Below are positions 1 to 8,581 of a stretch of 64,000 nucleotides of DNA, in pieces. Position 1 is the stretch's first letter. Each line of letters opens with the position of its first letter. The position numbers were made by a program, and so were the translations under genes. The DNA comes from Streptomyces antibioticus (GTDB taxonomy: Bacteria > Actinomycetota > Actinomycetes > Streptomycetales > Streptomycetaceae): contig NZ_KQ948432.1 of NCBI RefSeq assembly GCF_001514065.1, forward strand, positions 141,632 to 205,631, written 5' to 3'. The notes beneath the pieces are model-generated. The model had not been told where the DNA came from, made no database searches, and saw only the letters and a list, made by a program, of their open reading frames with translations.

Positions 1-576
1 GACGGTGTCGAAGAAGACCCCCAGCTCCCGTTCCTGCTCGGTGACTTCGTAGGCCCAGCCGGCGAAGCCGAGGCCGCCGAGCGGGTGGTCGGAGGCGCCG
101 GCCGGGATGGCGTACGGCGTGCCGCCCGACTCCTCGACCTCCCGGAGCGCCTGCTCCCAGCTCTCCTTGAACCCGATCCCGAACCCGGCCCGCACCAGCC
201 GTACGTCGGCGCCCGCGAGCCGGCTGATCAGGATGTTGCCGACCTTGTCGTAGACCGCGTCCGGCCAGTCCACCCAACTCTCCTGCACCAGGACGCACTT
301 GAGCCCGGCGCGGGCGGCGACGGCCGCGACCTGCCGGGTGTGGTTGGACTGGACACCGCCGATGGAGACGAGGGTGTCGCAGCCCTTCGCGAGGGCGTCG
401 GCGACGAGGTACTCCAGCTTGCGGGTCTTGTTCCCGCCGTACGCGATCCCGGAGTTGCAGTCCTCCCGCTTGGCCCACAGGGACGCGCCGCCGAGGTGCG
501 CGGTCAGGCGTTCCAGGGGGTGGACGGGCGAGGGTCCGAAGAGGAGGGGGTAACGCTCGTACGAGGAAAGGGACAT
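1..576 (-). CDS. acdS: 1-aminocyclopropane-1-carboxylate deaminase (N-terminal part)
   Basis: The first 192 codons of a PLP fold-type II enzyme that opens the ring of ACC, the plant ethylene precursor, to 2-oxobutyrate and ammonia. Visible are [10 protein letters not shown] near residue 36, the PLP-lysine motif GGNKTRK (Lys50), QSNHTRQ near residue 75 and the glycine-rich [11 protein letters not shown] stretch. The gene runs off the left edge, so roughly the last 145 residues of a normal ~340-residue protein are unseen. The ATG at 576 follows the GntR gene stop by 18 nt on the same strand, so the two are probably one operon. D-cysteine desulfhydrases share the fold. The overall motif set favours ACC deaminase, but the C-terminal specificity residues are outside the window. 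Confidence 0.87.
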
Positions 577-594
577 GGGGAGTCTCCCTGATCG

Positions 595-1233
595 TCAGTC
601 GCTGTCCGCGAGCTCGGCCAGCCCGCGCCAGATCTCCGCGGTGACCCGCACCGCCGCGTCCACGTCACCGGCCGCGCAGGCCGCGATGAGCCGCTCGTGC
701 AGCCCGGCCGAGCGGCAGTTGCCGCCCTCGCCGAAGCGGCGGCGTTCCAGTCGGCGGATGAGGGGGGTGTAGCGGGCGGCGGTCGCGGCGGCGGCGCGGT
801 TGCCGCTGACGCGGACGAGGACGTCGTGGAGGTCGTCGTCGGCCTGGAGCGCGCCGTCCACGTCACCCGCGCCGACGGCCGCGGCGAACCGCTCGTTGGC
901 CGTGCGCATCGCCTCGATGTCCGCGGCGAACAGCCGGGGCACGGCGATCCGGGTGACCAGCTCGTGCATGGCGCCGACGACCGCGGCGGCGTCCCGTACG
1001 TCCGAGGCCACGACCGGTGTCACCCGTGTGTAGCTCTGCGGCTTGCTCTCCAGCAGCCCTTCGTCGACGAGCCGCGAGAACGCCTCCCGCACCGGCGCCC
1101 GCGACAGTCCGAGCAGCTCGGCGAGATCGGCGTCCCGCACGACCGCGCCGGGCTCCAGCTCCCCGGCCACGATGGCGTCCCTGATGGCCGCGTAGGCGCG
1201 GTCCCTGAGCAACGTACGCGGTATGGCGTCCAC
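595..1233 (-). CDS. GntR-family (FCD-domain) transcriptional regulator
   Basis: A 212-residue regulator. Residues ~8-72 form the GntR winged helix (DRAYAAIRDAIVAGELEPG, then LAELLGLSRAPVREAFSRL). Residues ~85-205 are the all-helical FCD effector domain, with acidic and His positions that in this family often hold a metal or carboxylate ligand. It is the first gene of an operon with the ACC deaminase gene, so it probably controls ACC use. The chosen start is a GTG at 1233, 7 nt from a good -10 hexamer, which implies a leaderless message. The ligand cannot be told from sequence. Confidence 0.88.
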   Translation of the reverse strand: MDAIPRTLLRDRAYAAIRDAIVAGELEPGAVVRDADLAELLGLSRAPVREAFSRLVDEGLLESKPQSYTRVTPVVASDVRDAAAVVGAMHELVTRIAVPRLFAADIEAMRTANERFAAAVGAGDVDGALQADDDLHDVLVRVSGNRAAAATAARYTPLIRRLERRRFGEGGNCRSAGLHERLIAACAAGDVDAAVRVTAEIWRGLAELADSD

Positions 1234-1240
1234 AACTGAA

Positions 1241-1270
1241 ATGTTAGATGTCAGCCCTGGACGCCGACAA
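1241..1270 (-). promoter_or_regulatory. Promoter of the gntR-acdS operon (leaderless)
   Basis: On the minus strand TTGTCG (1270-1265), an 18-nt spacer and TAACAT (1246-1241) form a near-consensus vegetative promoter. The -10 box ends 7 nt before the GTG at 1233, so transcription would begin at or next to the start codon. No ribosome-binding site is present, which fits a leaderless mRNA. Confidence 0.6.
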
Positions 1271-1286
1271 GAGTGCGGACAAGGGT

Positions 1287-1318
1287 GTGGCCCGCACCCC
1301 CCGTGAAGTGCGGGCCAC
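1287..1318 (-). terminator. Terminator hairpin after rsr
   Basis: A perfect 10-bp GC-rich stem (GTGGCCCGCA 1287-1296 with TGCGGGCCAC 1309-1318) and a 12-nt loop lie about 20 nt beyond the rsr stop. Position and strength fit an intrinsic terminator. Like many Streptomyces terminators it lacks a long U tract. Confidence 0.65.
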
Positions 1319-1338
1319 CCCTGCCTGCTCGCCCGGCC

Positions 1339-2919
1339 TCAGGCCGCCCACGGCCAGTCGGCGTCGCGAGCGCTCTCCAGCAGCGGCACCATCCGGAACG
1401 CCGCGTCCGACAGGCCCCCGAAGGTGTGCCGGTTCGCCTTGCCCGACGGGCCGTGGCCCGCCCGGTAGCCGGCCAGGTTCCAGGTGTAGACCGGCACGTC
1501 GGCGGGGACCTGCTCGGTCGGGTCGCCGTAGTGGCTGTACGCGTACTGCTCGTCGGTGACGATCAGCACCCGGTCGTGCCCCCGGTAGTGCCGGCGCACC
1601 GCGCCCGTGGTGTCGGTGCCGCCCAGGTTGCCGAAGCGCTCCAGGATCTTCAGCACCGACTCGCCCTTGCGGAACCGCACCTCGGCGCTGGTGGTGCCGA
1701 ACTGCACGAGGTCGGCGCGCTCGGCGCGCAGCGCGAGGGCCGTGCCGAAGATCGCCGCCGCGTCCGCCCGGTTGAGCTGCGAGCGGCTCGACAGCGGACC
1801 CCACATCGAGCCCGAGCGGTCGACGAGGACGAGCGTCCGGCCGGACAGCGCGGGCACGTTGGCCAGCGAGTGGCCGAGCGCCTGCTCCAGCGGGTACGCC
1901 CAGCGCAGCGACGGCGCGTGCTGGTATGCGGCGAGGTACCGGAAGGGGAACTGCCGCGACCGCGCGACCTCCGCCGGGTCACTGATCCGGGCCGCGACCT
2001 GGGCCGCGACCTCGTCGGACACCCCGGCCTGGTCGAAGTTGCGGAGATTCCGCACGAGCGCCATCGCGCCCATGGACGGAATGACCGCCTCCCAGGCCGC
2101 CTTGTCCATCGGCCCCTGCAACCAGCCGGCCAGCGCCTCCCAGGTCATCCCGGCGGCAGCGAGCCGCTCGGCGCCGCCCTCGGAGGTGACGACCGCGCGC
2201 CGCTCGGCGACCGGCAGCGCCATCAGCTCACGGTGCGCGACCAGCGTCCGGTTCGACGCGGGCGGCACGGCCGTGTCCGGGTTGTGCCGGCGGTCGAGGG
2301 CGTACCGGAACAGCTCGCCCTGCCACGGCTTGTCCGGGTCGGGCGTCGCGTGCACCAGGTTGAGGATGTCGCCGAAGCGGTAGCCCTTGGCCGCCGTGTC
2401 GTACTTCAGCAGGGACTTTCCGCTGTAGAGACGTCGTACGGCGTCGGCGACGCCGCGCTTGACGGGCTTGGGCACATTGCGGCCGTAGGTCGCCGTCCAG
2501 TACGCGAGCAGCTCGCCGGGCTCGTCCGGACGCCGGAGCACGGAGTCGACGACCTGCCGGTTGGAGGGGCCGCCGGTGGCGCCCGCGTCGAGGCGCGCCT
2601 TCACGTACTCGGCGGCGCCGACGACGGAGGCGGTACGGAGGTTGCCCTCGCCGCGCAGCCAGCCGAGCAGCCCCGCGGTCCACTCCGGGTCGGTGACGGC
2701 GAGCTCCCGCACGAGCGTCGCGAACCGGTCGTCGCGGTCGGCGCCGGCCTCGTAGAAGGTGTCCTGCGCGACGAAATTGGCGACGGCGAGCAGAAACAGC
2801 TCGGAACGCGCGTCCCGCTCACGGCCTCGGCCGCCCTGGAAGGTACGCAGAATGCGGCCCATGGAGGTGACACGCGAAGTGGGCTGCGCCCGTGCTGTCT
2901 TCCTGTTGAATCGCGACAT
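1339..2919 (-). CDS. rsr: Ro60/Rsr family RNA-binding protein (TROVE + vWA)
   Basis: A 526-residue orthologue of the ring-shaped Ro60 autoantigen. Residues ~10-340 are the HEAT-like TROVE domain, which in this family threads misfolded RNA ends through the ring and holds Y RNA on its outer surface. Residues ~358-526 are a von Willebrand A domain with an intact MIDAS motif DRSGSMWG (Asp367). In bacteria Rsr with a Y RNA assists exoribonucleases such as PNPase or RNase II in rRNA trimming and decay under stress. The ATG at 2919 is preceded by GGGGG at suitable distance. Three Y-RNA-like elements lie directly upstream on the same strand. No RtcB ligase or RtcA cyclase gene, frequent partners elsewhere, lies in the window. 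Confidence 0.93.
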   Translation of the reverse strand: MSRFNRKTARAQPTSRVTSMGRILRTFQGGRGRERDARSELFLLAVANFVAQDTFYEAGADRDDRFATLVRELAVTDPEWTAGLLGWLRGEGNLRTASVVGAAEYVKARLDAGATGGPSNRQVVDSVLRRPDEPGELLAYWTATYGRNVPKPVKRGVADAVRRLYSGKSLLKYDTAAKGYRFGDILNLVHATPDPDKPWQGELFRYALDRRHNPDTAVPPASNRTLVAHRELMALPVAERRAVVTSEGGAERLAAAGMTWEALAGWLQGPMDKAAWEAVIPSMGAMALVRNLRNFDQAGVSDEVAAQVAARISDPAEVARSRQFPFRYLAAYQHAPSLRWAYPLEQALGHSLANVPALSGRTLVLVDRSGSMWGPLSSRSQLNRADAAAIFGTALALRAERADLVQFGTTSAEVRFRKGESVLKILERFGNLGGTDTTGAVRRHYRGHDRVLIVTDEQYAYSHYGDPTEQVPADVPVYTWNLAGYRAGHGPSGKANRHTFGGLSDAAFRMVPLLESARDADWPWAA

Positions 2920-2967
2920 GCTGAATTCCCCCGAATTCACTGTGGGTTTCGGAGGGAGGCGCAGCAG

Positions 2968-3126
2968 AAGGAGGGTGCCCGAGTTCGAAGTCGGCTGCGG
3001 AACAGACTGGCGCGTCTTCCGTTCCGCCACATCGACCCTGAGTCGATGACGGGATTCGAACCCGCACGAGGATCTACCCCACCAGTTCCGGAAGTATCCG
3101 CCGCCTGCGCACCGGGCACCCACCTT
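2968..3126 (-). ncRNA. Y-RNA-like element 3 with permuted tRNA-Leu-like domain
   Basis: Read on the minus strand, the ends pair: GGGTGCCC (3121-3114) with GGGCACCC (2980-2973), extended past one mismatch to 3126/2968. Inside, pieces of a tRNA appear in permuted order. First comes a T arm with loop TTCGAAT (3065-3049). Then comes a 7-bp acceptor-like helix closed by a short loop (CATCGAC 3048-3042, TCAGG, GTCGATG 3036-3030). Last is a D arm with GG in its loop (about 3027-3012). The D arm and the long segment before the T arm resemble class II tRNA-Leu. The anticodon arm is replaced by the long end-pairing stem. Such YrlA-type architecture is known for bacterial Y RNAs. The assignment is inferred from structure and from position next to rsr. 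Confidence 0.78.
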
Positions 3127-3134
3127 GAGCTGCG

Positions 3135-3208
3135 CCTCCCGAGATCAAGTCGGCTGCGGCATGGGATCTTTTGGGAGAAGAAGTAGCCGCGGCCCGCGCA
3201 CCGGGAGG
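3135..3208 (-). ncRNA. Y-RNA-like element 2, minimal form without tRNA domain
   Basis: About 74 nt on the minus strand. CCTCCCG (3208-3202) pairs with CGGGAGG (3141-3135), and GCGGC (3190-3186) pairs with GCCGC (3160-3156), leaving a ~25-nt loop that starts with TACTTC (3185-3180). Both stem strands closely match the stem of element 3: CCCGGTGCGC, CGGC/CGGA and TACTTC on the 5' side, CCGCAGCCGACTT on the 3' side. It therefore looks like the same module with the tRNA-like insert missing. Its first nucleotides overlap the last pairs of element 1, so the mature ends are uncertain. It could be a separate small RNA, part of one long precursor, or a decayed copy. Confidence 0.55.
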
Positions 3209-3360
3209 TGCATGAAGTTGTGGTGTCCAGAGTTCAGGTCGGCGGAACCGACATTAGGTGCTCTAACCCCTGAGCTACACCGGCGCGTGGTACCGGTGGC
3301 GGGACTCGAACCCGCGGCCGCCCCATTATGAGTGGAAGTAGGTCCTGCCTTCGCACCTGG
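3206..3360 (-). ncRNA. Y-RNA-like element 1 with permuted tRNA-Met-like domain
   Basis: A minus-strand RNA of about 155 nt. The ends pair as AGGTGC-GAAG (3358-3349) with CTTC-AT-GCACCT (3217-3206), a stem with a small bulge as in Ro-binding Y RNA stems. The 5' strand CGAAGGCAG resembles the conserved Y RNA sequence. Inside stands a complete tRNA 3' half: CTCATAA (3332-3326, the loop of elongator tRNA-Met), 5-nt stem strand, 5-nt variable loop, T arm with TTCGAGT (3315-3299), acceptor strand CACCGGT, then ACCA (3291-3288). After CGC follows the 5' half: acceptor strand GCCGGTG (3284-3278), TA, and D stem GCTC/GAGC around AGGGGTTA (3275-3260). The tRNA is thus circularly permuted and opened at the anticodon loop, where the Y stem enters. 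Confidence 0.83.
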
Positions 3361-3369
3361 ACGTGTTTC

Positions 3370-3375
3370 ACTCTA
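3370..3375 (-). promoter_or_regulatory. -10 box of the Y RNA / rsr transcription unit
   Basis: TAGAGT on the minus strand (3375-3370) fits the TAnnnT consensus. Transcription about 7-9 nt downstream would start at 3363-3360, exactly where the outer stem of Y-RNA-like element 1 begins. The -35 region is weak (TCGCCC with 17 nt spacing). No clear terminator separates element 3 from rsr, so the RNAs and rsr may share this promoter. Confidence 0.5.
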
Positions 3376-3409
3376 GGAGGCGTGCCGCGGGTGGGCGAGC
3401 CAATTAAAT

Positions 3410-4852
3410 TCAGCCGCGCTTCTGGCGCTTCCAGGGTCCGGTGATGGCGAGCATGATGCCGGGGGTCTGGATGTTGGCGAACAGGGTCCTGCCGTCGCAG
3501 GAGAAGGTGACGCCGGTGAACTCGCTGTACTCGGGCTCGTCTTCGGTGCCGATGTTGAGTTCGTTGCGGGCGATCGGGTACGTCTTGCCGCTGTCCGTGG
3601 CGCCGAAGAGGTGCTGGATGCCCTCGCCGTCCTCGGCGATGACGAGGCCGCCGTACGGGGAGACGGTGATGTTGTCGGGCCCGTCGAAGGCGCCGTCGAC
3701 GGAGGGGTCGGGGTTGACGCCGAGGAGCACCTTCAGGGTGAGGGTGCGGCGCTTGGGGTCGTAGAACCAGACCTGGCCGTCGTGCTGGACGGGGCTCTCG
3801 GCGCGGGCGAAGGAGGAGACGATGTAGGCGCCGCCGTCGCCCCACCACATGCCCTCCAGCTTGCGGGCGTGGGTGACCTGGCCGGCGGTGAACTGCTTGC
3901 GGACGGCGACGGTCTTGGCGTCGCGGTCGGGGACGTCCACCCAGTCGACGCCGTAGACGGTGCCGATCTTGGTGGCGCGGGAGAGGTCGTCGACGAACTG
4001 GCCGCCGGAGTCGAAGCACTTGAAGGCCTGGAGGGCGCCGGCGTCGTCGGCGAGGGTGCGCAGCTTGCCGCGGCCGTGCTCGAAGCCCTGGGGCGGGGTC
4101 CAGCGGAAGAGCAGGCCGTTGGGCGAGGCCGCGTCCTCGGTGAGGTAGGCGTGGCCGCGCCTGGGGTCGATGACGACGGCCTCGTGGGCGTAACGGCCGA
4201 AGAACTTCAGAGGCTTGGGGACGCGGTTGGCGCGGTGGTCGATCGGGTCGACCTCGAAGACGTAGCCGTGGTCCTTGGTCATGCCGTTGGTGCCGGCCTT
4301 GTCCTCGGTCTCCTCGCAGGTGAGCCAGGTGTCCCAAGGGGTGCGCCCGCCGGCGCAGTTGGTGGAGGTGCCGGCGATGCCGACCCACTCGGCGACGTGC
4401 CCGCCGGGGCGGACCTCGACGACGGTGCAGCCGCCGGACGCGGCGGGGTCGTAGACCAGGCCCTCGGTGAGCGGGACGGGGTACTTCCAGTTGGCGCGCG
4501 GGCCCTTCAGCTCGTGGTTGTTGACGAGGAGGGTCGTCCCGCGGGGGCCGTCGAAGGTGGCGGTGCCGTCGTGGTTGGACGGGGTGATCTCGCCCGACTC
4601 CAGCTTGGTCCTGCCGCTGTAGGTGATGACGCGGTACTTGAACCCGGCGGGCAGCGCGAGGATGCCGTCGGGGTCGGGGATCAGGGGCCCGTAGCCGACT
4701 CCGCCGCGAGCGTCCGCCCCGCTCTCGGCGTCGATGTCGGTGGACGCGAGGGCTTGCGGCGCGGTGGCGAGGGCGCCGACGCTGCCGGCCAGCGCGACAC
4801 CGGCACCGGTGATCGCGGAGTTTCTGGCGAAGTCCCTGCGGGTGAGCGACAT
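3410..4852 (-). CDS. PhoX-family (DUF839) secreted phosphatase-like protein
   Basis: A 480-residue exported protein. The N-terminus MSLTRRDFARNS plus a hydrophobic stretch to about residue 36 is a Tat signal (twin arginines 5-6), with processing near ALAST. The mature part is a single PhoX/DUF839 beta-propeller, with LVNNHELKGP, WLTCEETEDK, GRYAHEAVVIDP and FDGPDNITVSP matching the acidic Ca/Fe-binding loops of this family. Characterised PhoX enzymes are periplasmic or secreted alkaline phosphatases; other members lack proven activity. It stands alone, ending 35 nt before the Y RNA promoter. Confidence 0.85.
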   Translation of the reverse strand: MSLTRRDFARNSAITGAGVALAGSVGALATAPQALASTDIDAESGADARGGVGYGPLIPDPDGILALPAGFKYRVITYSGRTKLESGEITPSNHDGTATFDGPRGTTLLVNNHELKGPRANWKYPVPLTEGLVYDPAASGGCTVVEVRPGGHVAEWVGIAGTSTNCAGGRTPWDTWLTCEETEDKAGTNGMTKDHGYVFEVDPIDHRANRVPKPLKFFGRYAHEAVVIDPRRGHAYLTEDAASPNGLLFRWTPPQGFEHGRGKLRTLADDAGALQAFKCFDSGGQFVDDLSRATKIGTVYGVDWVDVPDRDAKTVAVRKQFTAGQVTHARKLEGMWWGDGGAYIVSSFARAESPVQHDGQVWFYDPKRRTLTLKVLLGVNPDPSVDGAFDGPDNITVSPYGGLVIAEDGEGIQHLFGATDSGKTYPIARNELNIGTEDEPEYSEFTGVTFSCDGRTLFANIQTPGIMLAITGPWKRQKRG

Positions 4853-5026
4853 GGTGTCTCCTGTGTGGCGGTGGGTGTGCCGTGGGAGGTGGCGGACCTC
4901 GGGTCGGCGTCACCGTCCCGCCCACGCCTGAACGGGGGCTGAACACGGGACGACGTCCGCATGTTCGCTTCCATGAATCCGTCGGCACACCCCGACCCGC
5001 GGTGCGGCCCACCGCCGCCCCGCGAC

Positions 5027-6454
5027 TCAACCGCCGTGCTGCGAGCGGGCCTTGAAGGCCGCCTTGCGCGCTTCCTTCGCGATCTTCTTGTCCGGGTGCA
5101 GCCGTCCCATCGCCTCCAGCACATCCGCGGTAGCCGGGTGGTCCACCCGCCATGCGGCGGCGAAGAACCCGCTGTGCTGCTGGGCGAGGCCCTCCACGAG
5201 CCCCTGCAACTCCTCGGAGTTGCCCTCGGCGGCGAGCTGTGCGGCGACCGTGTCGACGGTGAGCCAGAAGATCATCGCCTCCGAGGGCGGCGGTACGTCC
5301 GTGGCGCCGCGCTCGGTCAGCCAGACCCGGGCCAGGCCACCGAGCTCCGGGTCGTCGAGGACCGCCCGCAGCGCCGGTTCGGCCTCCGGCCCCACGAGGG
5401 ACAGGGCCTGCTGGCAGCGCAGCCGGCGCAGCGGTGCGCCCCCGTCCCCGCCCCGGCTGGCGGCCAGCAACTCCCGGGCGGCGGCGAGGGGTTCACGCCG
5501 GTCCAGCCACTGCTCGGTCTCGGCCTGCGCGGCCCCGGGCGGGAAGGCGGCGGTGCCGTCGAGCAGGGCGTCCGCGCCCTTGTCGACGAGGTCCCCGACG
5601 GCGGGCGCCGCGAATCCGGCCTCAAGGAGCCGGGCCCGGAGTCCGTACAGGCCGAGCGGGGTGAGCCGCACCATGCCGTAGCGGGAGACGTCGGTGTCGT
5701 CGACCGGCGCGGCGGGCTCCTCGTCGGCGTCGGCCATGAGCGCCTCGTCGACGGGCTGGTACTCGACGAGTCCGATCGGCTCCAGGACCCGGAACTGGTC
5801 GTCGAGGCGCATCATCGCGTCGGAGACCTGTTCGAGGACGTCGTTGGTGGGTTCCCCCATGTCGTTGGGGACGATCATGGACGCGGCGAGGGCGGGGAGC
5901 GGCACCGGCCGGTCGCCGGGGCCGTCCTCGTTGACGGTGAGCAGATAGAGGTTGCCGAGCACGCCGTCGAGGAAGTCGGCCTCGGCCTCCGGGTCCCAGT
6001 CGAGGGCGGAGAGGTCGATCTCGCCGCCCTCGTCCATGGCGTCCACCAGATCGTCGAGGTCGGGAACGCCCGCGTCGGCGACGACCGTCTCCAGCGCCGC
6101 GAGCCACACCCCGAGCACGTCCTGCGGGGAGCCGCCGGTGAGCAGGGCGAGGTCCTCGCCGGCCGCGACGGTGCCCTCCTCCTCGTCGGTGATCTCGACA
6201 AGTCCGGTGTCGATCGCGACCCGCCAGGCCTCGCTCGCCCAGGCCGCGGCGTCGTCCCCGGTCACGCCGAGGAACTCGGCGGCGGCGGGAAGCTGGTCCT
6301 CGATCAGTCCGCCGCCGGCGTCGACGCGGGTCTCGGGAGAGGCCCAGCGGGCCAGCCGGGCGGCCCGGGAGAGCAGCGGCGTGGACAGCGCGTCCCGCGC
6401 CAGCTCCGCTTCGGGGTGCAGCCGCACCGGCGGCAGGGGGGAGCTGTCTGACAT
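5027..6454 (-). CDS. Conserved hypothetical protein, 475 aa
   Basis: Not recognised as a named family. The protein is soluble and acidic, with no signal peptide or membrane segment. The first 300 residues contain acidic stretches and mixed helices. The C-terminal ~120 residues are rich in Ala, Leu and Glu and look like helical repeats, ending in a basic tail (KKIAKEARKAAFKARS). The ATG at 6454 has AGGAGA at 12-14 nt. Codon use is normal for the region, so it is a real gene. It lies alone between a PhoX-type gene and a divergent nuclease. Confidence 0.8.
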   Translation of the reverse strand: MSDSSPLPPVRLHPEAELARDALSTPLLSRAARLARWASPETRVDAGGGLIEDQLPAAAEFLGVTGDDAAAWASEAWRVAIDTGLVEITDEEEGTVAAGEDLALLTGGSPQDVLGVWLAALETVVADAGVPDLDDLVDAMDEGGEIDLSALDWDPEAEADFLDGVLGNLYLLTVNEDGPGDRPVPLPALAASMIVPNDMGEPTNDVLEQVSDAMMRLDDQFRVLEPIGLVEYQPVDEALMADADEEPAAPVDDTDVSRYGMVRLTPLGLYGLRARLLEAGFAAPAVGDLVDKGADALLDGTAAFPPGAAQAETEQWLDRREPLAAARELLAASRGGDGGAPLRRLRCQQALSLVGPEAEPALRAVLDDPELGGLARVWLTERGATDVPPPSEAMIFWLTVDTVAAQLAAEGNSEELQGLVEGLAQQHSGFFAAAWRVDHPATADVLEAMGRLHPDKKIAKEARKAAFKARSQHGG

Positions 6455-6566
6455 CGGCTGCTTCTCCTAGACATCGCGTCTTACCACTCAGCCGCTCAGC
6501 CTAGACGGATTTGGACCCATGCCGCCCGGTTCATCTCCCCGTCAGGTCTCGTACATGACCGAAACC

Positions 6567-6596
6567 TTGACAACTGACGTGATCACGCAGGAGATT
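6567..6596 (+). promoter_or_regulatory. Possible promoter of the secreted nuclease gene
   Basis: TTGACA (6567-6572) is a perfect -35 hexamer. GAGATT (6591-6596) at 18-nt spacing is a weak -10. It points to the nuclease gene, with a ~150-nt leader that contains a long inverted repeat. Confidence 0.4.
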
Positions 6597-6666
6597 ACGC
6601 GCGTAGAAATTCACTGCACACCTGTTCACCGCCCTGACACCTGCGCACGCTACTTTCTACGCGCGT
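6597..6666. repeat. 13-bp perfect inverted repeat in the nuclease leader
   Basis: ACGCGCGTAGAAA (6597-6609) and its exact complement TTTCTACGCGCGT (6654-6666) are separated by 44 nt, between the putative promoter and the TTG start at 6752. As RNA this would be a stem around a 44-nt loop; as DNA it could be two half-sites of an operator. Confidence 0.6.
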
Positions 6667-6751
6667 CGCCTCCGCCCCACCGGTCGCGGCTCCCACCGTT
6701 CCACGCTCCACCCTCGTCCCGGCGCACCAGATCGTCCCCGGAGGGATCCCG

Positions 6752-8581
6752 TTGCCGAGCAAGTCTTCCGCGCGCCTCGCCGCGCTCACCGTCGCCGCCA
6801 TGTGCTCCGCCGCGTCCACGGTCGTCCTGACCTCCCCCGCGCACGCGGACTCCGTGCGCATCCATGACATCCAGGGCACGACCCGGATATCCCCGTACGC
6901 CGGCCAGAAGGTCGCGGACGTCTCCGGCATCGTCACCGGTATCCGTACGTACGGTTCGTCCAAGGGCTTCTGGATCCAGGACCCGAACGCGGACGACAAC
7001 CCGGCCACCAGTGAGGGCGTGTTCGTCTTCACCAGCTCCACCCCGAAGGGCGTCGCCGTCGGCGACCTCGTCACGGTCTCCGGCACGGTCTCGGAGTACG
7101 TCCCCGGCGGCACCTCCTCCGGCAACCAGTCGATCACCGAGATCACCAAGCCGACCACCACGGTCGTCTCCAGCGGCAACGCCGTCCCGGCCCCCGTGGT
7201 CGTGGACGCCAGGTCGGTCCCGGCCGCCTACGTCCCGGCCGGTGACGCCGCCGCGGGCAACTCGATCAACGGCCTGACCCTGGAGCCGTCGAAGTACGCC
7301 CTGGACTACTACGAGTCCCTGGAGGGCGAGAACGTCCAGGTCGCCGACACCCGCGTGGTCGGCGCCAGCGACCCGTACACCGAGCTGTGGGTGACGGTGA
7401 AGCCGCGCGAGAACGCCAACCGCCGCGGCGGCACCGTCTACGGCTCCTACGACGCCCAGAACACCGGCCGGCTCCAGATCCAGTCGCTCGGCCCGACCTC
7501 CGCCTTCCCGAAGGCGAACGTCGGCGACGTCCTGGAGGGCGCCACCGCCGGTCCGCTGGACTACAACCAGTTCGGCGGCTACACCCTCGTCGCCAACACG
7601 ATCGGCACGCTGAAGAGCGGCGGCACCGAGCGCGAGACGACCGAGAAGCAGAAGCGCGGCGAGCTCGCGGTCGCGACGTACAACGTCGAGAACCTCGACC
7701 CGTCCGACGACACCTTCGCCGCGCACGCCGCCGCGATCGTGAACAACCTTCAGTCGCCCGACATCGTGTCCCTGGAGGAGATCCAGGACAACAACGGCGC
7801 GACCAACGACGGTACGGTCGCCGCCGACCAGACGGTGCAGAAGCTGATCGACGCGATCACGGCCGCGGGCGGCCCGACGTACGACTGGCGCTCCATCGAC
7901 CCGACGAACGGCACGGACGGCGGCGAGCCGGGCGGCAACATCCGCCAGGTGTTCCTGTTCAACCCGGAGCGGGTCTCCTTCACCGACCGCGCGGGCGGCG
8001 ACGCCACCACGGCCGTCGGGGTGACGAGGGAGCGCAGCAAGGCGGCCCTGACGGTCTCCCCCGGCCGCATCGACCCGGCGAACGAGGCCTGGACGTCCAG
8101 CCGCAAGCCGCTGGTCGGCGAGTTCGTCTTCCGCGGCCGCACGGTCTTCGTGATCGCCAACCACTTCAACTCCAAGGGCGGCGACTACGGTCTGACCTCG
8201 GCGACCCAGCCGGTGCCGCGCAGCTCGGAGGTGCAGCGACACAAGCAGGCCACCCTGGTCAACGCGTTCGTCAAGGACATCCTCGACACCCAGAAGAACG
8301 CGGACGTCATCGCGCTCGGCGACATCAACGACTTCGAGTTCTCCGACACCGCCAAGATCCTGGAGACGGACGGCGCCCTGTGGTCGGCGATCAAGTCGCT
8401 GCCGAGGAGCGAGCGTTACTCGTACGTCTACCAGGGCAACACCCAGGTCCTGGACCAGATCCTGGTCTCCCCGTCGATCCGGCGCGGCTGTGACTTCGAG
8501 TACGACAGCGTGCACGTCAACTCGGAGTTCAACGACCAGATCAGCGACCACGACCCGCAGGTCCTGCGCTTCAAGCCGTAA
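6752..8581 (+). CDS. Secreted endonuclease/exonuclease/phosphatase-family nuclease
   Basis: A 609-residue exported nuclease-like protein. The signal peptide is residues 1-32 (cleavage after AHA). Residues ~35-290 form an OB-fold-like N-terminal region typical of ExeM/NucH-type extracellular nucleases. Residues ~305-609 are the EEP catalytic domain, with TYNVENL, IVSLEEIQDNNG (catalytic Glu), NHFNSKGGD, GDINDFEFSD and the terminal SDHDPQV motif all intact. The TTG start at 6752 is chosen because GGAGGG precedes it by 7 nt and the signal peptide begins there. Likely role: degradation of extracellular DNA for nutrients or during development. Confidence 0.88.
   Translation: MPSKSSARLAALTVAAMCSAASTVVLTSPAHADSVRIHDIQGTTRISPYAGQKVADVSGIVTGIRTYGSSKGFWIQDPNADDNPATSEGVFVFTSSTPKGVAVGDLVTVSGTVSEYVPGGTSSGNQSITEITKPTTTVVSSGNAVPAPVVVDARSVPAAYVPAGDAAAGNSINGLTLEPSKYALDYYESLEGENVQVADTRVVGASDPYTELWVTVKPRENANRRGGTVYGSYDAQNTGRLQIQSLGPTSAFPKANVGDVLEGATAGPLDYNQFGGYTLVANTIGTLKSGGTERETTEKQKRGELAVATYNVENLDPSDDTFAAHAAAIVNNLQSPDIVSLEEIQDNNGATNDGTVAADQTVQKLIDAITAAGGPTYDWRSIDPTNGTDGGEPGGNIRQVFLFNPERVSFTDRAGGDATTAVGVTRERSKAALTVSPGRIDPANEAWTSSRKPLVGEFVFRGRTVFVIANHFNSKGGDYGLTSATQPVPRSSEVQRHKQATLVNAFVKDILDTQKNADVIALGDINDFEFSDTAKILETDGALWSAIKSLPRSERYSYVYQGNTQVLDQILVSPSIRRGCDFEYDSVHVNSEFNDQISDHDPQVLRFKP

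What the first reader, a model, noticed from the sequence alone, without database searches (positions are those of the whole stretch)
2968..3360. Array of three Y-RNA-like elements directly upstream of rsr
In ~390 nt three end-paired RNA modules lie head to tail on the rsr strand: ~155, ~74 and ~159 nt. Elements 2 and 3 share both stem strands, and all three carry TACTTC just after the 5' stem strand (3340-3335, 3185-3180, 3096-3091). That three RNAs precede one Ro60 gene is seen in the sequence. That they are Ro partners is inferred from family knowledge of YrlA-type RNAs next to rsr. A multi-RNA set could let one protein use different adaptors.
Basis: partly seen in the sequence, partly recalled or inferred. 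Interest (0 to 1): 0.93.

Follow-up and report, generated by a model that had tools for sequence, protein, structure and literature searches.

The report
Array of tRNA-mimic Y RNAs
Just before the gene for a Ro60-like RNA-chaperone protein, this Streptomyces-type genome carries three small RNA elements built on one shared stem, two of them bearing rearranged copies of transfer RNAs, and in related species the copied tRNA is a different one, which suggests an interchangeable set of adaptors.

Summary
The three elements are real: window 3362-3225 (A), 3207-3136 (B) and 3118-2976 (C), minus strand, upstream of rsr. Across 169 related rsr loci plus the window the commonest layouts are A-B-C (78), B-C (57), A-C (16) and A-B (11). 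Stems show compensatory changes in every slot; a model of A finds C in the window at E=5e-17. They are best read as Y RNAs, though below Rfam's YrlA cut-off.

Slot A keeps a seven-base anticodon-like loop (C32, U33, A38 in 106 of 106 that parse, of 109). Slot C is cut open in the anticodon loop and its tRNA resemblance differs between species: Leu (window), Arg, Lys, Met, Trp. The window (Leu) and a relative with 97% identical Rsr (Arg) differ in this. Host tRNA-Arg searched against a whole genome hits slot C in two pieces in swapped order. A -10-like motif lies at fixed spacing before first A elements. Solitary Y-like RNA genes exist in some genomes.

Circular permutation and several Y RNAs per species are known; tRNA-identity turnover, the anticodon arm and solitary genes I did not find in eight literature searches, but the key papers were not readable. 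Rsr binding is untested.

The parts
1342..2919 (-). rsr (Ro60/TROVE protein with weak von Willebrand A match, ATG at 2919)
   Evidence: sequence; PF05731 E=1.9e-13 at residues 273-332 and VWA_2 below its cut-off
3225..3362 (-). Element A: Y RNA with permuted tRNA-like domain including an anticodon-like arm
   Evidence: R1 153.1 bits (its training set includes this copy); covariation; Rfam YrlA 34.9 bits over 3327-3251, below gathering 69
3321..3337 (-). Element A anticodon-like arm, stem UUCCA/UGGGG, 7-nt loop CUCAUAA at 3332-3326
   Evidence: A1 columns 27-43: two of five pairs with both-sided changes in 4 of 23 sequences each; loop census
3299..3315 (-). Element A T arm
   Evidence: A1 columns 49-65, two of five pairs with both-sided changes
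3278..3298 (-). Element A acceptor-like hairpin (closed by a loop instead of free ends)
   Evidence: A1 columns 66-88, 3 of 7 pairs with both-sided changes
3260..3275 (-). Element A D arm
   Evidence: A1 columns 91-106, (stem invariant, so no covariation evidence of its own)
3136..3207 (-). Element B: minimal Y RNA, no tRNA-like domain
   Evidence: R2 84.7 bits (training set includes this copy); covariation
2976..3118 (-). Element C: Y RNA with permuted class II (leucine-type) tRNA-like domain
   Evidence: R1 74.2 bits without any slot C in its training; alignment A4; tRNA comparison
3068..3080 (-). Element C long variable arm
   Evidence: A4 columns 40-54: all 5 pairs have both-sided changes in some sequences; 2 to 5 of 18 rows unpaired or gapped per pair
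3049..3065 (-). Element C T arm
   Evidence: read from the sequence; RNAalifold on A4 chose another pairing here, on A3 (class I) it shows the T arm
3030..3048 (-). Element C acceptor-like hairpin
   Evidence: A4 columns 74-93
3011..3029 (-). Element C leucine-type D arm (GUGGCGGAAC...AGACGCG)
   Evidence: alignment to host tRNA-Leu
3370..3375 (-). -10-like TAGAGT, 7 nt before element A
   Evidence: TA(A/G/C)AGT upstream of first A in 89 of 108 loci, upstream of later C in 0 of 152 and later B in 1 of 92; no sigma-70 consensus site found
2923..2938 (-). GAATTCGGGGGAATTC palindrome over the rsr ribosome-binding region
   Evidence: exact in 117 of 169 loci

Best explanation
This is a three-element Y RNA array in front of the Ro60 orthologue rsr. 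Shown by sequence: each element is closed by the same kind of long stem with conserved internal-loop motifs, A and C carry circularly permuted tRNA-like domains, B does not, and only the first element has a promoter-like motif. Inferred: one transcript starts at or next to the first base of element A and runs through A, B, C into rsr; the elements are released or stay in the leader; Rsr binds the shared stem; the variable upper part is the effector end that gives the particle its partner, as described for PNPase with known bacterial Y RNAs. A would offer a four-armed tRNA mimic, C a mimic without closed anticodon arm whose tRNA identity turns over between species, B a bare form that occupies Rsr without a tRNA-type partner. 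The tRNA-like parts are derived from real host tRNAs by exchange of sequence tracts with tRNA genes or between alleles.
For: TROVE neighbour; shared stems and covariation with shuffle and slide controls; association with rsr across 392 genomes (Fisher p 4e-60 for 154/192 against 4/175, species relatedness not corrected); matches to R1 or R2 at 18 of 19 fetched TROVE loci outside the genus, six with about four elements in a row (L248, L249, L252, L255, L257, L258); YrlA similarity of 33-57 bits in 10 of 12 related loci scanned; permuted tRNAs score better than unpermuted ones in 249 of 250 long elements, median margin 11, e.g. Arg 45.8 vs 27.8 (L003), Lys 46.0 vs 29.0 (L231), Leu 42.7 vs 27.2 (L070); whole-genome BLAST of host tRNA-Arg hits slot C as tRNA 36-62 (96%) followed by tRNA 6-34 (93%) in G063; promoter-like motif at fixed spacing before first elements only.
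Against: No expression or binding data. Every Rfam YrlA score stays under the gathering score of 69. Element A's own folding energy is ordinary. 38 of 192 strong-rsr genomes lack an R1 hit below 1e-13; some of these carry B-C arrays that R1 scores weakly (e.g. G182, C at 5.1e-11), but G038 and G055 gave only the tandem-tRNA hit and G005 one unexamined full-length hit at 5e-9. 70 of 152 slot C elements could not be assigned to one tRNA. The window's own Leu score (27.4 against 24.4 for the next amino acid) is a modest margin; its Leu label rests on the D arm and variable arm.
Confidence: 0.85

Rival explanations
1. The elements are mainly a cis-acting 5' leader: Rsr binds them in its own mRNA and controls rsr expression, or they sense tRNAs.
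For: No terminator-like site in 2880-3520 and almost no -10-like motif before B or C when they are not first, so they probably share a transcript with rsr.
Against: Related elements stand alone without a TROVE relative within about 2.1-2.6 kb at 11 loci, 10 of them with a -10-like motif upstream; in G196 and G329 no TROVE was found in the genome.
Confidence: 0.1
2. Chance inverted repeats, or remnants of tandem tRNA genes (3' half of one tRNA followed by 5' half of the next looks like a permuted tRNA).
For: Tandem tRNA genes do score with R1: hits near 1e-10 are listed for most genomes; the own genome's hit C2:378419-378497 overlaps two tRNA genes. The YrlA model also hits there.
Against: The hits of this kind that I could inspect cover model positions 26-104 only and lack the outer stem; array elements match 1-138 and covary in outer and inner stems.
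Confidence: 0.02
3. The elements are Y RNAs, but changes of tRNA identity in slot C are neutral drift or exchange between strains of a few old alleles, not repeated capture from tRNA genes and not adaptive.
For: Leu-type (56) and other (96) forms recur across the Rsr tree with at least 21 changes, as allele exchange would give; T arm and acceptor hairpin are an identical 38-nt run in the window and in L003, so whole modules were not swapped in one piece.
Against: Close tracts to several different tRNAs (Arg, Lys, Met, Trp, Leu) need several source tRNAs.
Confidence: 0.35

Closest known systems
YrlA / bacterial Y RNAs (Rfam RF02553; Salmonella YrlA structure 6CU1)
   Same: Next to rsr; end-paired stem; T arm, closed acceptor hairpin and D arm in permuted order. 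Circular permutation of Y RNA 6CU1 against tRNA is stated in PMC11472068 (passages).
   Different: All scores below the gathering score. Element A adds a covarying anticodon-like arm; element C of the window has a class II variable arm; element B lacks the tRNA-like domain.
Salmonella yrlB-yrlA pair in the rsr-yrlBA-rtcBA operon
   Same: More than one Y RNA beside one rsr (PMC7790460, passages).
   Different: There they lie within an RNA repair operon; here A, B and C precede rsr, with a PhoX-like gene upstream. I did not examine yrlB sequence and did not look for rtcB here.
Deinococcus radiodurans Y RNA in the Rsr-PNPase particle (RYPER)
   Same: Proposed role: Y RNA bridges Rsr and an effector (PMC8394870 and PMC7790460, passages).
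   Different: No partner tested here.
Vertebrate Y RNAs
   Same: Ro60 site on a conserved lower stem with bulges, variable loop (PMC4726728, passages).
   Different: No Rfam vertebrate Y RNA match in window 1-8000 at E<=1; the bulge pattern drawn by RNAalifold is not the same.

Membership tests
bacterial Y RNA (YrlA-type) | Encoded beside a Ro60/Rsr gene | tested here: met
   association
bacterial Y RNA (YrlA-type) | 5' and 3' ends form a long conserved stem | tested here: met
   much of the outer stem is invariant, so covariation there comes from few pairs
bacterial Y RNA (YrlA-type) | tRNA-like domain with T, acceptor and D arms in permuted order | tested here: met
   Elements A and C. Element B: not met
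Rfam RF02553 (YrlA) | Gathering score of 69 bits | tested here: not met
   34.9 bits for element A; best of 12 related loci 56.7. I file these as Y RNAs in the wider sense, not as RF02553 members
bacterial Y RNA (YrlA-type) | Stable transcript bound by Rsr | not testable with these tools
   needs RNA-seq and co-immunoprecipitation
bacterial Y RNA (YrlA-type) | Substrate of tRNA-modifying enzymes (TruB, DusA) | not testable with these tools
   described for YrlA in PMC8394870 (passage)

The most novel reading that the evidence does not exclude
Actinobacterial Ro60 particles are loaded from a changing library of rearranged host tRNAs. The slot next to rsr is repeatedly rebuilt from different tRNA genes (leucine, arginine, lysine, methionine, tryptophan), while the first slot keeps a complete anticodon-type arm with an invariant U33 and A38. 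The RNAs would act as decoys or docking copies of particular tRNAs, for example against tRNA-cutting toxins or for tRNA repair and modification enzymes, and the turnover would reflect a contest over which tRNA is targeted. Solitary copies would supply more identities (anticodon loops of Asp, Glu and Gly type).
Probability: 0.25. Interest if true: 0.85.

Novelty: new variant of a known kind. Interest (0 to 1): 0.62.

Why it matters
What bacterial Y RNAs recruit with their tRNA-like ends is largely open. A natural series in which the docking stem stays constant while the tRNA identity changes, in one case between species with 97% identical Rsr, lets one ask directly whether tRNA identity decides the partner. 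It also gives a three-member set (full mimic, open mimic, no mimic) on one protein in one organism, and predicts tRNA-type modifications in element A's anticodon-like loop.

Tried and rejected
Chance hairpins: rejected by covariation and by model R1 finding C. tRNA genes: ARAGORN finds none in the window. Single-sequence MFE of the whole array joins elements to each other, so I relied on alignments. A first slot parser missed most A elements through a scoring slip; corrected. Ungapped Rsr identities among the Arg-type loci may be distorted by small length differences and are not used. The tRNA comparison of the own genome's solitary copy was made on the wrong strand and is not used. tRNA family search in 8 genomes listed too few tRNAs per genome to compare and was followed by BLAST with two tRNAs. 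No match to the array in the phage collection and two short ones in the plasmid collection. Literature: in eight full-text searches I saw no title or abstract on Streptomyces Y RNA arrays, tRNA-identity turnover or solitary Y RNAs; of the papers I read only passages of six and no whole text. Chen 2014 and two reviews that I asked for are not held and Wang 2018 was not looked up, so absence from print is not shown. The idea that U36, A37 and A38 point to t6A modification rests on recalled rules for that modification.

Full report
Observation. Window 2968-3360 does hold three end-paired RNA modules on the rsr strand. I place them at 3362-3225 (A), 3207-3136 (B) and 3118-2976 (C). Upstream lies a PhoX-like gene (3410-4852, minus). 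In window 1-8000 Rfam gives one relevant match, YrlA over 3327-3251 at 34.9 bits against a gathering score of 69.

Relatives. The named collection gave 80 rsr loci kept of 322 relatives; a genus-wide search found rsr in 217 of 392 genomes, 192 of them strong and 25 weak by my reading of the list. I used 29 loci of that search (the thirtieth is the window's own) and fetched 60 more. The set of 169 loci plus the window contains near-duplicates (distinct sequences: 96 of 109 A, 130 of 149 B, 135 of 152 C). L009 has no upstream sequence and L013 and L085 only 292 nt, so element A could not be seen there. A script that looks for GTGCG flanked by a pairing stem gave: A-B-C 78, B-C 57, A-C 16, A-B 11, A alone 4, and one each of empty, C-B, b-A-B and C-B-C, of 170. 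These counts are approximate: in L195 (filed A-B) a C-like element with an altered motif is visible, in L187 (filed C-B) the first 'C' lies in coding sequence, and in some A-C loci such as L004 a short remnant of B is seen.

Structure. Twenty-three A, 37 B and 32 class I C sequences, thinned for diversity, were aligned. Consensus folds show the outer stem, an inner stem, and in A and C the T arm, a closed acceptor-like hairpin and the D arm. Pairs with changes on both sides: A 10 of 40, class I C 14 of 37, B 4 of 17; in each case 0 of 500 shuffles reached that number, and slid structures fall to 31-51% of cells paired. For A the count of further pair types was reached by 24 of 500 shuffles. 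Some helices are invariant and give no evidence, for example the D stem of A and most of the outer stem of B. For 18 class II C elements 11 of 45 pairs have both-sided changes (0 of 500 shuffles), including all five pairs of the long variable arm; there RNAalifold drew the T and D arms differently from tRNA, so those arms rest on sequence.

Independent detection. Model R1 (slot A) finds C in the window at E=4.8e-17, the next non-array match at 0.21. Over 392 genus genomes R1 hits below 1e-13 occur in 154 of 192 with strong rsr, 2 of 25 with weak matches and 4 of 175 without (lists typed by hand). Hits around 1e-10 are listed for most genomes; those inspected cover model positions 26-104 and in the own genome fall on tandem tRNA genes. 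Of the four genomes without rsr, G283 and G186 keep an array beside a short rsr tail, which indicates deletion of the gene; G196 and G329 have solitary elements. Of 30 TROVE loci of the class, 29 have an R1 match (E up to 0.01) or R2 match (up to 0.05), among them 18 of the 19 from outside the genus; six of these show about four elements in a row (L248, L249, L252, L255, L257, L258).

tRNA content. tRNA genes of the window's genome were collected; 63 ARAGORN predictions, some doubtful or near-identical, were used. Of 250 long elements, 249 aligned better to a tRNA in permuted order than to any in native order; the exception is L102 C. Slot A resembles tRNA-His best in 67 of 94 listed, then Met 9, Arg 7 and others, with a margin of 3 or more over the next amino acid in only 28. 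Its anticodon-like arm has a seven-base loop in 106 of 109 (C32 106, U33 106, U36 104, A37 95, A38 106 of 106; positions 34-35 vary; the window has CUCAUAA). Slot C has a leucine-type D arm in 56 of 152, 45 of them at least 142 nt long and 11 shorter (hybrids such as L019); of the other 96, 26 could be assigned with a margin of 3 or more (7 Arg, 7 His, 5 Lys, 3 Met, 2 Trp, 1 Phe, 1 Pro) and 70 could not. The clearest are Arg in L003 (45.8 against 32.4 for the next amino acid) and L074 (45.5 against 28.5), Leu in L070 (42.7 against 28.5), Lys in L231 (46.0 against 39.7), Met in L209 (44.0 against 34.0) and Trp in L210 (42.2 against 36.2). tRNA-Arg(ACG) is identical in the own genome, G063, G033 and G159; BLAST with it finds slot C of G063 as tRNA 36-62 at 96% followed downstream by tRNA 6-34 at 93%, and G033 likewise (93% and 93%); for G159 one piece was listed. 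For tRNA-Lys one piece of slot C was listed in G278 and none in G054 or G257.

Turnover. On a FastTree tree of 169 Rsr proteins the fewest changes are 21 for leucine-type against other D arms in slot C (152 loci) and 26 for presence of slot A (169). No shuffled control was run, and recombination, parsing errors and cut contigs would inflate these counts. The window (Leu) and L003 (Arg) have Rsr 96.9% identical by ungapped comparison, yet differ in slot C and in presence of slot A; their T arm and acceptor hairpin share an identical 38-nt run, so the difference lies in the two flanking tracts. I infer patchy exchange with tRNA genes or between alleles; the two cannot be separated here.

Expression signals. 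TA(A/G/C)AGT precedes first A elements in 89 of 108 loci, in 86 at exactly 7 nt, later C elements in 0 of 152 and later B in 1 of 92. First B elements have a similar motif within 45 nt in 43 of 57, most often (28) at 20 nt; later B in 1 of 92. No sigma-70 consensus or terminator-like site was found in 2880-3520. This suggests one start at the array and read-through into rsr.

Solitary genes. Of 19 second-locus regions that I picked from the R1 list, 8 have a TROVE relative nearby and 11 do not. Of those 11, 10 show a TANNNT motif upstream (nine at 6-7 nt, one at 14), and in nine the downstream 70 nt fold into a clear long hairpin (-33 to -45 kcal/mol; no shuffled control; L269 and L270 are weaker). 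Their anticodon-like loops include CUGUCAA, CUCUCAA and UUGCCAA, as in tRNA-Asp, -Glu and -Gly. The window's own genome has one such copy at C1:1016182-1016317 (92.2 bits), but its outer stem looks decayed and no -10-like motif was found.

Placement. These work like, and most likely are, bacterial Y RNAs. Several Y RNAs per rsr and the permuted tRNA-like domain are known (PMC7790460, PMC11472068, passages). From recall, Chen 2014 reported Y RNAs near Ro60 in many bacteria with at least one tRNA-like one per species; that paper was not readable here. New relative to what I could read: the modular three-slot layout, the anticodon-like arm of slot A, the changing tRNA identity of slot C, the class II form, and solitary genes.

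Noticed in passing
window 2923-2938 (-): Palindrome GAATTCGGGGGAATTC over the rsr ribosome-binding region, exact in 117 of 169 loci; could hide the ribosome site in a hairpin or be an operator.
   Followed up: partly
L269-L275, L280-L282, L287: Solitary Y-like RNA genes without TROVE nearby, in two genomes (G196, G329) without any detected TROVE.
   Followed up: partly
L276-L279, L283-L286: Further TROVE relatives in the genus with their own Y-like elements.
   Followed up: partly
L328, L329 (G186, G283): rsr apparently deleted to a short tail while the Y RNA array remains.
   Followed up: yes
L289 (G000:C1:1016182-1016317): Apparently decayed solitary Y-like element in the window's own genome.
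   Followed up: partly
L291 (G000:C2:378419-378497): Tandem tRNA genes mimic a permuted tRNA and score about 1e-10 with the Y RNA model; a trap for annotation.
   Followed up: partly
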